This document shows positions 32,059 through 35,675 of a stretch of 64,000 nt of DNA, in pieces (positions within the stretch are counted from its first letter, which is position 1; the number at the start of each line of letters is the position of its first letter). The notes under the pieces were generated by a model. It had not been told where the DNA came from. It searched no databases and saw only the letters and a list, made by a program, of their open reading frames with translations. Source of the stretch: Lolliginicoccus suaedae. Its GTDB lineage: Bacteria > Actinomycetota > Actinomycetes > Mycobacteriales > Mycobacteriaceae. The position numbers were made by a program, and so were the translations under genes. The stretch covers positions 235,846-299,845 of the forward strand of contig NZ_VSSO01000002.1 of NCBI RefSeq assembly GCF_008312885.1, written 5' to 3'.

Positions 32059-32147
32059 GCGAATCTGCGAGCAAATGTCACCATCCTCGCAGCGTGTCGC
32101 AGCGTGTCGCGCGACATTCACCAGCAGATCCTCCCGCAGCCAGCCAG
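32059..32147. repeat. 89-bp direct repeat, left boundary of the low-GC island
   Basis: This 89-bp sequence recurs at 35587-35675 with four mismatches. It is itself partly palindromic (ATCTGC with GCAGAT, AATGTC with GACATT) and contains a doubled GCAGCGTGTC. It lies about 135 bp after tRNA-Ser(CGA). The rest of the 31964-32293 gap holds TATACT at 32207-32212 as a possible -10 element for the island genes, and no gene. Confidence 0.9.
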
Positions 32148-32293
32148 TCGATCACGTGACCTTGCCTAGACTTCGAAAAGCGCTGTGTGCTGCAATCCGC
32201 AGTCCTATACTTGGGCGCGGCTAAACGCCTGCCGGAGCACAGTTTTCGGGCGGGCTCCACAGTCGGTGGATGAATGGACTGGCATGATTGTCA

Positions 32294-33769
32294 ATGCTCG
32301 AACGGGGATGCGACCGCGTGGCCACGTACGCTGCTAGAGATATTTACGCGTTAGCGCACAGCTATCTGCGTGGAGCCGGGCAAGTTGACAGGCTTGTCGG
32401 TGACACGCTAGAAGGTTGGGCTGTCCATTGGTCGAAAACACGGTCGGCAGAGGTGAGCCTCGTAATCGATGGGCAGGAGTGCCTGCGAGTCGCAGCGAAC
32501 CGGCATCGCGCCGACTTGGAGGCAGCAGGCATCTGTGGTGGAAATGCTCAGTTCATGGTGAAGATCCCTCGCAGGTTCCATGATGGGCAGCCGCATTCGG
32601 TCGAGATCATCAATGAGTCGAATCAGCGGCCCATCACGCCGGGGAAGCTTGTAGTAACAATTGGTCCTGAACTCGCGGGCCACGGCCATGATGAGCAAGC
32701 CCCGCTTGGCGCGGCAACTTTCGATCAGGCTAGCGGCAGTCGCGGGAAGCGCATGGAGTACTCGTGGAGAGTCAGCAGCCAGGCGCAGGGAGCAGGTCTC
32801 AAGCAGGAGCTCAAAGAAAAGCGAAAGCTTGCCGTCGTCGCCGCATGGAGCAACCAGAGAACGTTTCTCTCCTGCCACAGGGATATTGTTTCGGACTTGA
32901 AGAGCATGGGATTCGCTGTGGTCCTGGTTCACGCGACCGATCGGCAGGATGAGTGGCGTACCTGCTCGGAGATCGAGGGCCTGGATTGCCTCATAGATCG
33001 ACCCAATCAAGGATACGATTTTGGCTCGTGGGCAACGGGAATACTCCACTGCGCGGATGTATTGAATGATCTCGATGAGGTCATCCTCGTCAATGACTCG
33101 GCATTCGGACGGATCGCGCCGCTTGAGCCACGACTCAGCGCTTGTTCCGCGCCTTTCGTGTGCTTGACAGATTCCTACCAAGTTTCGCACCACGGCCAGA
33201 GCTATTTCCTTCGATTCGGTCGCGAGCCGCTGGAATCAGGGGCAGTGCTGGACTTCTTTGAGAAATATCCTTTCACGAACAAGAAGCGGGATGTTATCAG
33301 GAATGGCGAGATTGGCCTGAGCGCGGCAATGCTGGATGGCGGATTCGGTATCCATCCATTGTTCCCCTATGAGCAAGTGGCGGCTCGGTGGATCGAGCAT
33401 GCACCGAGTACTGTTGACCTGATCAAGGATTCTTACCGCGATATCGGTCTCTATGGCAGCAAGACGATGGAGCGACGGCTGGATTCGTTCGCCGCGCATG
33501 TAGAGAGCGTGCTGCGGAATGTTCCGCTCAATCCGTCGCACTTGTTCTGGAGAACGCTCATCTCAGAGCATGGATTCCCCCTCATCAAGCGCGAGCTGCT
33601 ACTGAAGAATCCAATCGGTGTTGCTGATCTCTTTCCGATGAAGTCCGCGCACTACCTGGAAGCTATCGGCGCGGATCATCAGGTCGTCGAGTACCTGGCG
33701 CGACACGGGGATGGCCCACTGATCCAATGTGGAAAGCTATCCGAGCATGAAATGTTGACCGTAAACTGA
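32294..33769 (+). CDS. Rhamnan synthesis F (RgpF)-like glycan protein
   Basis: The protein (491 residues from the ATG at 32294) has two parts. Residues about 10-115 form a beta-sandwich-like domain with EGWAVHWSKTRSAEVSLVIDG, seen in front of various glycosyltransferases. Residues about 180-480 match the RgpF/rhamnan-synthesis-F family, including NQGYDFGSWATG and DEVILVNDSAFG. This family takes part in making rhamnose-glucose or similar surface polysaccharides and is probably a glycosyltransferase. The start is unsure: TTG at 32288, ATG at 32294 and GTG at 32318 (with GGGGA before it) are all possible. It opens the low-GC island and is probably cotranscribed with the next two genes. Confidence 0.8.
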   Translation: MLERGCDRVATYAARDIYALAHSYLRGAGQVDRLVGDTLEGWAVHWSKTRSAEVSLVIDGQECLRVAANRHRADLEAAGICGGNAQFMVKIPRRFHDGQPHSVEIINESNQRPITPGKLVVTIGPELAGHGHDEQAPLGAATFDQASGSRGKRMEYSWRVSSQAQGAGLKQELKEKRKLAVVAAWSNQRTFLSCHRDIVSDLKSMGFAVVLVHATDRQDEWRTCSEIEGLDCLIDRPNQGYDFGSWATGILHCADVLNDLDEVILVNDSAFGRIAPLEPRLSACSAPFVCLTDSYQVSHHGQSYFLRFGREPLESGAVLDFFEKYPFTNKKRDVIRNGEIGLSAAMLDGGFGIHPLFPYEQVAARWIEHAPSTVDLIKDSYRDIGLYGSKTMERRLDSFAAHVESVLRNVPLNPSHLFWRTLISEHGFPLIKRELLLKNPIGVADLFPMKSAHYLEAIGADHQVVEYLARHGDGPLIQCGKLSEHEMLTVN

Positions 33770-33784
33770 CCTTCAGGGGGGCAA

Positions 33785-34465
33785 GTGAAATCATTGGAAC
33801 AGTCAAGCTCGGGCTGGGTCCTTCGTGATCCGGTTCCCGGCTCGCGAAAAACTTTCTGTGTGCTCGGTGTAGCGCGAGGCGGAACCTCGATGGTTGCGGG
33901 GCTTTTGCACCAGCTCGGCGTCAACATGGGGACGCATATCGATCCCAGCAACCAGGAGGACGTCGATTTCCTCACGCATCGAGGGATTAGGCGGATTTTC
34001 TGGAACCGCGCAGAATCTGCCAAGCGGAAAGAATATGTGAAGCATGCGCGATCGCTCATTTCTGACCGCAACGAAGCATTGGAGACCTGGGGCTGGAAGG
34101 ATCCAATAGCCTCGTACTACGTCGCTGACGTTCACCGCTTTCTCGTCAATCCGCACTACATTTTTGTGGTGCGGGATGTCGCGGCGGTCGCGGCTCGGGA
34201 GATGAGGCACGCCGGTGATGTCGTAGCGGGCGACTCTATAAACCTTATCGATCGAGCCTTGAAAGAGTACTCTGATTGCCTCGGCTTCCTCTCAGGGATC
34301 AAGAGTCCTGCTCTTTTCATCAGCTATGAGCGTGCGCTTCGGCACCCAATGGATACAGTCAGGCTCCTGGCCGATTTTGTGGGCGCTTCCCCGCTGGATG
34401 GGCAACGTTGCGAGAATCTAGCCGCATACATTCAGCCGGAGAGAAACACTGCGGCATTCGGCTGA
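33785..34465 (+). CDS. Sulfotransferase-family protein
   Basis: A 226-residue protein with a PAPS-type 5' phosphosulfate loop-like element near the N-terminus (FCVLGVARGGTSMVAGLLHQLG, in pieces VARGGTSMVAGLL), the sequence WGWKDPIASYY, and IFVVRDVAAVA in the 3'-phosphate region. These fit bacterial sulfotransferases acting on glycans or glycolipids. The GTG at 33785 follows AGGGGGG, a strong ribosome site, and comes 15 bp after the RgpF-like gene. It is shorter than many relatives, so substrate-binding parts may be missing. Codon use is AT-richer than the genome norm, as for the other two island genes. Confidence 0.72.
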   Translation: MKSLEQSSSGWVLRDPVPGSRKTFCVLGVARGGTSMVAGLLHQLGVNMGTHIDPSNQEDVDFLTHRGIRRIFWNRAESAKRKEYVKHARSLISDRNEALETWGWKDPIASYYVADVHRFLVNPHYIFVVRDVAAVAAREMRHAGDVVAGDSINLIDRALKEYSDCLGFLSGIKSPALFISYERALRHPMDTVRLLADFVGASPLDGQRCENLAAYIQPERNTAAFG

Positions 34466-34557
34466 TGCACTGATTGTGTCCTGTTTCAAGGGTTTCGCTA
34501 ATAGCGAAAGTCTTTAGCTATTCATGCATTACTTTGACTTCTGCAGGAGGGCAGGCA

Positions 34558-35568
34558 ATGAGCATCGCAAACCTGGTTCGTAAAGTGACACCAAGCAAGT
34601 TCCATTCGATGGTGGGCGCTGATTCCCGCAAGGGTGAGGTGAGGATAACCTTCGATATTGCAACCACGTTCCGGCGCTTCGCCTATTTTCGCGGCACGAT
34701 CCGCGGTGGATCCGGTGGGGCGTGCAAGATCGTATCCGCCCAGGTTGCCTCCAACGTGGAAATGAGTCCAGCGTCCATCAACTCGTGGCCGAACCAGAGG
34801 GATCCGAGCGTCATAGTGTTCGAGGTCTTCTCGGTCGCCTACGAGGAGTTCGACCTCGCGCAATCCAGCCTCGAGCTCACCATCAAGTGTGGTCGGGATG
34901 AGCAGGTGGTTTCGCTGCCCTACTCCGAGGTCCAGAAGCGCCATGGGGCGGAGAGCTACACCGTCATGGAGACCTGGCGGTCGCTCGTCAGCGATGCGGA
35001 TGTCAAGCAGGTGCTTGATGTTGGCGGACGTGCGCGCAGTGGCGTGTCGCACAAAGACATAGCGCTCGGCAAGAACGTCGTGATCACCGACATCATCGAG
35101 GCCGATGATGTGGACATCGTTGCTGATATTCATGAGCTTTCGCAGCATGTCGAAGAGAAGTTCGATGCCTTCATGAGCATCGCTGTCTTCGAGCACCTGG
35201 TCATGCCCTGGAAAGCAGTGGTCGAACTGAACAAGGTGCTGCGAACGGGGGCGGTGGGGCTTGTGGTCACTCACCAGACCGAGGGGCTTCACGACGTTCC
35301 CTGGGACTTCTATCGCTATAGCTCGGATGCGTGGAAGGGCCTGTTCAACAAGAGGACCGGGTTCGAGATCGTCGACACCGGCATGCGGACACCGATGGGA
35401 TTCATCCGCCTGCGGTGGAACCAGCGCAATACTGGCACTACTTTCGCGGTCGGCTACCAGGAATCCGCTGTGGTCGTGCGCAAGATCGGTGAGCCCGAGG
35501 TCGACTGGCCCGTGAGCTTGGCCAGCTTGGTCGAGACTGGCTATCCGGGCTTCCCCGAGGGGCGATAG
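34558..35568 (+). CDS. SAM-dependent methyltransferase with N-terminal extension
   Basis: The 336-residue protein has an N-terminal region of about 130 residues of unclear fold, then a class I methyltransferase domain with VLDVGGRARSGVSHKD, VITDIIEADDVDIVADIHEL and the acidic/HxH region FDAFMSIAVFEHLVMPWKAV. Related enzymes act on surface sugars. The ATG at 34558 is supported by GGAGGGC; a longer reading from 34474 is not. It lies about 90 bp after the sulfotransferase gene and is the last island gene, with the right-hand 89-bp repeat 18 bp beyond its stop codon. Confidence 0.78.
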   Translation: MSIANLVRKVTPSKFHSMVGADSRKGEVRITFDIATTFRRFAYFRGTIRGGSGGACKIVSAQVASNVEMSPASINSWPNQRDPSVIVFEVFSVAYEEFDLAQSSLELTIKCGRDEQVVSLPYSEVQKRHGAESYTVMETWRSLVSDADVKQVLDVGGRARSGVSHKDIALGKNVVITDIIEADDVDIVADIHELSQHVEEKFDAFMSIAVFEHLVMPWKAVVELNKVLRTGAVGLVVTHQTEGLHDVPWDFYRYSSDAWKGLFNKRTGFEIVDTGMRTPMGFIRLRWNQRNTGTTFAVGYQESAVVVRKIGEPEVDWPVSLASLVETGYPGFPEGR

Positions 35569-35586
35569 TGATTCGGTGATTGGCTG

Positions 35587-35675
35587 GCGAATCTGCGAGC
35601 GAATGTCACCATCCTCGCGGCGTGTCGCAGCGTGTCGCGCGACATTCACCTGCAGATCCTGCCGCAGCCAGCCAG
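35587..35675. repeat. 89-bp direct repeat, right boundary of the low-GC island
   Basis: It matches 32059-32147 in the same orientation at 85 of 89 positions. A short (GCCA)n tandem follows (to about 35696). It lies between convergent genes: the methyltransferase and the histidine kinase. Confidence 0.9.

What the first reader, a model, noticed from the sequence alone, without database searches (positions are those of the whole stretch)
32059..35675. Low-GC glycan-modification island between 89-bp direct repeats beside tRNA-Ser(CGA)
The repeats at 32059-32147 and 35587-35675 match at 85 of 89 bases. The three genes between them are visibly poorer in GC (27 of 60 bases at 33241 against 44 of 60 at 39361). 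They encode RgpF-like, sulfotransferase-like and methyltransferase-like enzymes. Direct repeats, tRNA proximity and composition fit horizontal gain, but no recombinase is present, so the mode of integration is open.
Basis: partly seen in the sequence, partly recalled or inferred. Interest (0 to 1): 0.7.

Follow-up and report, generated by a model that had tools for sequence, protein, structure and literature searches.

The report
Sulfation islet between direct repeats
A three-gene DNA islet that probably helps add sulfate to a cell-surface sugar sits between two near-identical repeats in an actinobacterium; one sister species keeps it, and another seems to have dropped it together with the distant gene that makes the active sulfate.

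Summary
In detail: 85/89-bp direct repeats bound a 3.44-kb, 57.1% GC islet (rest of window 68.0%) with RgpF-like, sulfotransferase-like and methyltransferase-like genes, about 135 bp past tRNA-Ser(CGA). The interpretation needs changing. (1) The tRNA 3' end is not repeated. (2) The repeat is a copy of a dispersed palindromic ~75-bp element (19, 21, 28 and 0 places in the four genomes held for the genus); in G001 (a Lolliginicoccus lacisalsi contig) the repeat is longer and contains the 3' end of the neighbouring kinase gene. (3) G001 has the same islet at the same place; G003 has one repeat and no islet. (4) G003 is probably a loss: the only Sulfotransfer_3 matches in the four genomes are the islet's, a clear APS kinase (PAPS supply) occurs in the same two genomes, and G003 keeps a 66-bp remnant of that kinase gene in its exopolysaccharide cluster. 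(5) Islet divergence between G000 and G001 is within what low GC3 predicts, so separate recent gains are not needed. Best reading: an old acquired sulfation islet, vertically kept, whose repeats recombine and allow clean deletion. Donor, mode of entry and substrate are unknown.

The parts
31835..31923 (+). tRNA-Ser(CGA); left neighbour, not the repeated target
   Evidence: no duplicated 3' end
32059..32147 (+). left direct repeat; contains a copy of the dispersed palindromic element
32318..33769 (+). RgpF-like gene (listed ORF opens at 32288 TTG; GTG 32318 lines up with the start in G001, inferred)
33785..34465 (+). sulfotransferase-like gene, the only Sulfotransfer_3 match found in its genome
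34558..35568 (+). Methyltransf_11-type methyltransferase-like gene
35587..35675 (+). right direct repeat, 85/89 identical to the left one
35696..37108 (-). histidine-kinase-like gene (true start probably nearer 37009, by comparison with G001); its 3' end abuts the right repeat and in G001 is partly duplicated at the left repeat

Best explanation
This is an old, recombinase-free glycan-sulfation islet that was already at this site in the common ancestor of G000, G001 and G003. Its sulfotransferase uses PAPS made by an APS kinase encoded far away in an exopolysaccharide cluster; with the RgpF-like protein and the methyltransferase it decorates a surface or secreted polysaccharide (inferred from families and co-occurrence). 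Entry duplicated a stretch holding the palindromic element and the 3' end of the histidine-kinase gene, as still seen in G001 (inferred). The two copies keep recombining with each other, probably by RecA, which keeps them alike inside each genome and can delete the islet cleanly, leaving one repeat (inferred). That happened in G003, which also lost its APS kinase by a separate deletion (the deletion is shown, its link to the islet is inferred).
For: Same islet and slot in G001, with its own repeats. One repeat and no islet sequence at the G003 site. PF13469: 1 match in G000, 1 in G001 (both in the islet), 0 in G002 and G003, of 4 genomes. APS kinase: E about 2e-63 in G000 and G001 only, next to an EPS initiating transferase. 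In G003 the cluster is syntenic but apsK is gone except a 66-bp in-frame 3' remnant, 57 of 66 identical. Repeats are 85/89 alike within G000 and 111/115 over the main block within G001, but 67-71 of 88-91 columns between them. Islet pS (0.634, 0.659, 0.416) lies inside the interval predicted from GC3 by 20 other genes. Sulfation branch: PMC3141025, passages.
Against: Only 4 genomes. The order of G000, G001 and G003 is unresolved (quartet sites 110/118/107; G001+G003 with bootstrap 78), so the tree does not prove loss. APS kinase profile also gives weak 20-22-bit matches in all 4 genomes, two of them just over the cut-off (G001, G002; profile positions 3-49 at most). Other sulfotransferase families were not searched. 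The intervals are wide; with flank genes alone the islet lies above the mean prediction (0.63-0.66 against 0.50-0.51). Concerted repeats could also mean separate recent insertions, and another element pair in G000 is 92.0% alike without an islet known between them. Left junctions differ between G000 and G001. Substrate, PAPS use and RecA dependence are untested.
Confidence: 0.55

Rival explanations
1. Two separate horizontal gains of related islets at the same hotspot in G000 and G001, each duplicating its own target; G003 never had one.
For: Repeats match within, not between, genomes. Islet DNA identity 77.0% against 86.7% and 89.9% in the flanks; 4-fold sites differ at 151/269 in the first two genes against 571/2130 in 11 flank genes. 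G002 carries other genes in the same slot.
Against: Divergence is within what the low GC3 predicts. The right junctions align through the methyltransferase end, repeat and kinase end (320 of 380 columns). G003 has an apsK remnant, so its lineage once had the enzyme.
Confidence: 0.27
2. Remnant of an integrase-borne element that targeted the 3' end of the histidine-kinase gene and has lost its integrase. This concerns entry only and is compatible with the best explanation, so the odds overlap.
For: In G001 the far repeat carries a 3' fragment of the kinase gene while the kinase gene beside the right repeat is open from its conserved MQSAEAAP start to its end, the pattern that such elements leave (recalled).
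Against: No recombinase or phage family among the three genes; the shared block is longer than usual att cores (recalled).
Confidence: 0.35
3. The repeats are two neighbouring copies of a dispersed element and have nothing to do with the islet.
For: 19 places in G000; none of 29 copies examined lay wholly inside a called ORF.
Against: The pair is the most alike of 136 within-genome pairs among 30 aligned copies (94.7%; runner-up 92.0%, mean of the rest 72.6%); in G001 the likeness runs on into the kinase gene; G003 has one copy there.
Confidence: 0.05

Closest known systems
Genomic islets bounded by direct repeats and lost by recombination between them (recalled)
   Same: Direct repeats, low GC, polymorphic presence, single repeat where absent
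   Different: Repeat is a dispersed palindrome plus, in G001, a protein-gene 3' end, not a tRNA end; no recombinase among the genes
Sulfation branch of sulfate assimilation in Mycobacterium tuberculosis (PMC3141025 passages; PMC4373884 abstract and outline)
   Same: APS kinase as PAPS source for sulfotransferases, in the same order Mycobacteriales
   Different: In M. tuberculosis the kinase is a domain of CysN (abstract); here a separate gene in an exopolysaccharide cluster. The islet sulfotransferase has no PDB sequence match
REP/BIME-like intergenic palindromic repeats (recalled)
   Same: Short, palindromic, dispersed, outside called genes
   Different: No Y1 transposase (PF01797) match in G000, G001 or G002; the core GTGTCGCGGCGTGTCGCG is the best conserved part
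Rhamnan synthesis F family proteins on plasmids of Azospirillum and others
   Same: Homologous over 48-55% of the query in the 12 of 26 records listed
   Different: Only 29.8-34.0% identical there; no phage match

Membership tests
Integrative element / genomic island with its own recombinase | Flanking direct repeats | tested here: met
Integrative element / genomic island with its own recombinase | Recombinase gene inside | tested here: not met
   three genes scanned, none a recombinase; smaller ORFs not scanned
Integrative element / genomic island with its own recombinase | Insertion at a tRNA 3' end | tested here: not met
   only 8-10-base matches
Integrative element / genomic island with its own recombinase | Empty site in a relative | tested here: inconclusive
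   single-repeat site in G003, but likely a deletion
PAPS-dependent sulfotransferase | Curated profile match | tested here: met
   PF13469 32.4 bits against cut-off 27
PAPS-dependent sulfotransferase | PAPS source in the genome | tested here: met
   APS kinase in both islet-bearing genomes
PAPS-dependent sulfotransferase | Sulfate transfer activity | not testable with these tools
   needs an assay
RgpF-type glycosyltransferase | Full-length RgpF profile | tested here: inconclusive
   only profile positions 21-168 of 503 matched
REP elements mobilised by RAYT | RAYT/Y1 transposase in the genome | tested here: not met
   PF01797: 0 in G000, G001, G002; 1 in G003
REP elements mobilised by RAYT | Dispersed palindrome outside genes | tested here: met
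   29 of the 68 places examined by a rough ORF heuristic

The most novel reading that the evidence does not exclude
The direct repeats act as a recombinase-free switch: homologous recombination between two copies of a genus-restricted palindromic element removes or restores a sulfation islet, so that sulfated and unsulfated surface polysaccharide types alternate in populations, and apsK decays once the switch is off.
Probability: 0.12. Interest if true: 0.65.

Novelty: new member of a known kind. Interest (0 to 1): 0.42.

Why it matters
It gives a small natural experiment: two unlinked loci (a sulfotransferase islet and an APS kinase gene) are present or absent together in four related genomes, with a visible gene remnant that tells the direction of change at one of them. 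It predicts which strains make a sulfated polysaccharide and points to a dispersed palindromic element that I found in no Rfam family. It also warns that a single-repeat site need not be an ancestral empty site.

Tried and rejected
tRNA as att site: rejected. RAYT-driven movement of the repeat: no Y1 transposase match in G000 or G001. Independent gain inferred from high synonymous divergence: held until the GC3 control showed it to be within expectation; kept as a rival. Defence or phage cargo: no match of the three proteins in PADLOC or PHROGs at E 0.01. Plasmid or phage donor of the RgpF-like gene: only remote plasmid homologues, no phage match. Neighbourhoods of remote homologues: of seven fetched, two were scanned in part (7 of 9 called ORFs of L043, 3 of 10 of L046); neither scan showed a sulfotransferase, so the trio was not found there; L044, L045, L047, L048 and L049 got ORF lists only. 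Structure prediction of the RgpF-like protein failed (mean pLDDT 37.1, two-row alignment) and was not used. NCBIfam: no family for the three islet proteins. PDB sequence searches for the RgpF-like protein and the sulfotransferase: none. A second EPS locus (G000:C3, G001:C4) had no G003 counterpart (only 40 of 438 G003 candidates scored) nor in 1.27 Mb of G003, about a third of that genome; left open. Literature: searches returned no paper; some searches returned 1, 1, 11, 20 and 3, judged from the listings (8 of 11 and 10 of 20 listed). One paper names Lolliginicoccus (PMC12451644, passages). None of the listed titles concerns this islet or repeat.

Full report
Observation. The two 89-bp repeats match at 85 positions and the stated GC counts are correct. 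The 3,439 bp between them have 57.1% GC; 268 windows of that length elsewhere in the 64 kb average 67.9% with a minimum of 64.9%. The three genes match RgpF, Sulfotransfer_3 and Methyltransf_11 above Pfam's cut-offs. None of them is a recombinase. The nearby tRNA-Ser(CGA) is real but is not repeated at the other end.

Place in the tree. The window lies in a 3.47-Mb genome, G000. G001 has the contig length of Lolliginicoccus lacisalsi G463 scaffold25 (226,314 bases), and the islet gene sits in that named contig, so the genus is Lolliginicoccus, Hoyosellaceae, Mycobacteriales. Names for G000, G002 and G003 are not established. G002 is a distant member of the same genus as held here (68-69% DNA identity in eight genes, against 88-89% among the other three).

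What the repeat is. A full-length search found the two copies and two partial ones in G000. The core GTGTCGCGGCGTGTCGCG with up to 2 mismatches occurs 17, 16, 25 and 2 times in G000, G001, G003 and G002, against 1, 3, 1 and 2 for the reversed control. A covariance model of 30 copies finds 36, 38, 54 and 0 matches counting both strands, which I collapse by hand to 19, 21, 28 and 0 places, and one weak match in the 37 other genomes searched (with stricter filters and 118 scored candidates per genome). The element is a palindrome with weak covariation (5 of 19 pairs with a change on both sides; covariation term -0.28). In 31000-37000 no Rfam family but tRNA reached its gathering score. Of 29 copies checked with a rough ORF heuristic none lay wholly inside a called ORF: 12 tandem, 11 convergent, 6 divergent. 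One copy lies, by coordinates, in the same syntenic stretch in G000 and G003, so copies can be old.

The site in relatives. G001 carries all three genes in the same order (75-76%, 78% and 85-86% protein identity) between longer repeats: 204 identical of 233 alignment columns with 20 gap positions, reaching into the 3' end of the histidine-kinase gene; tblastn sees kinase residues 446-469 at the left copy. The kinase beside the right copy is open in G001 from its conserved MQSAEAAP start; the stop flagged lies upstream of that start. G003 has tRNA-Ser, one repeat and the kinase gene, with no islet sequence left. G002 has other genes in the slot, by eye a hydrolase, an ArsR-like protein, an MFS transporter and a different methyltransferase (names not searched). 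Beyond the genus, 348 genomes of the order gave 11 with any RgpF-like match, G000 included and the rest remote (28-36%), and 396 of the phylum gave 35 with any methyltransferase match, G000 included, the next best at 38%.

Function. PF13469 occurs once in G000 and once in G001, both in the islet, and not in G002 or G003; other sulfotransferase families were not searched. A clear APS kinase (E about 2e-63) occurs in G000 and G001 only; each of the four genomes also has a weak 20-22-bit match to at most profile positions 3-49, over the cut-off in G001 and G002, which I take for an unrelated P-loop protein without having tested it. The clear gene sits between an EPS initiating sugar transferase and cpn60, with a GT4 glycosyltransferase, a DUF4012 protein, an RgpF-domain protein and an esterase beyond. 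In M. tuberculosis APS kinase makes PAPS, the sulfotransferase substrate, whereas reduction starts from APS (PMC3141025, passages). I infer that islet and APS kinase serve one sulfated polysaccharide. That polymer and any activity are untested, and four genomes are few.

Direction of change. In G003 the EPS cluster and cpn60 are syntenic, but the apsK segment is missing. What remains is 66 bp, 57 identical, with the frame ASIAAQLCPTIQAQVASLR-stop, the last residues of APS kinase. So the G003 lineage once had the enzyme. By inference it also had the islet and lost it by recombination between the repeats, which would leave the observed single copy. This last step is not shown: the tree of the three species is unresolved (quartet-informative sites 110, 118, 107; G001+G003 at ultrafast bootstrap 78).

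One old islet or two gains. Islet DNA is 77.0% identical between G000 and G001, flanks 86.7% and 89.9%, and synonymous differences are 0.634 and 0.659 in the first two genes against 0.159-0.398 in eleven flank genes. This looked like separate origins. Across 20 genes, however, synonymous difference rises as GC3 falls (r -0.69), and the line predicts 0.69, 0.71 and 0.46 for the islet genes, observed 0.634, 0.659 and 0.416. With the 11 flank genes alone the predictions are 0.50, 0.51 and 0.36, with wide intervals that still hold the observed values. Both are extrapolations below the lowest GC3 sampled (0.79). Vertical descent since before the split is enough. If so, the repeats should differ inside a genome at least as much as between genomes; they do not (85/89 within G000, 111/115 over the main block within G001, 67-71 of 88-91 columns between), so they have been homogenised by recombination or conversion, or were renewed by separate insertions. 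I prefer the former because the right junctions align (320 of 380 columns) and because of the apsK remnant.

Verdict. Ordinary in kind (a repeat-bounded, low-GC islet), but with a likely partner gene and a direction of loss. First entry was probably horizontal, judged from composition and restricted distribution; donor and mechanism are unknown.

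Noticed in passing
L115:7338-8030 (G000:C5) and L127 (G003:C5): APS kinase intact in G000 and G001, reduced to a 66-bp 3' remnant in G003 within an otherwise syntenic exopolysaccharide cluster.
   Followed up: yes
genome-wide, e.g. G000:C2:415457-415531, G000:C4:33074-33148: Dispersed ~75-bp palindromic element, 19/21/28/0 places in G000/G001/G003/G002; the core is better conserved than the arms; role unknown.
   Followed up: partly
window 35060-35565: The second half of the methyltransferase gene differs less between G000 and G001 at 4-fold sites (24/81) than the first half (37/71), Fisher p 0.008: recombination tract or constraint. 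The halves were chosen after seeing the profile.
   Followed up: partly
window 22847, 27349, 31835, 48111: Four serine tRNA genes (TGA, GCT, CGA, GGA) lie within about 25 kb.
   Followed up: no
L128 (G000:C3:440000-458000), L129 (G001:C4:22000-41000): A second polysaccharide locus with GDP-mannose dehydratase, Wzz-type and initiating-transferase genes, without a G003 counterpart or in 1.27 Mb of G003.
   Followed up: partly
L020:7052-10331 (G002:C4): The slot between tRNA-Ser(CGA) and the histidine kinase holds other genes in G002.
   Followed up: partly
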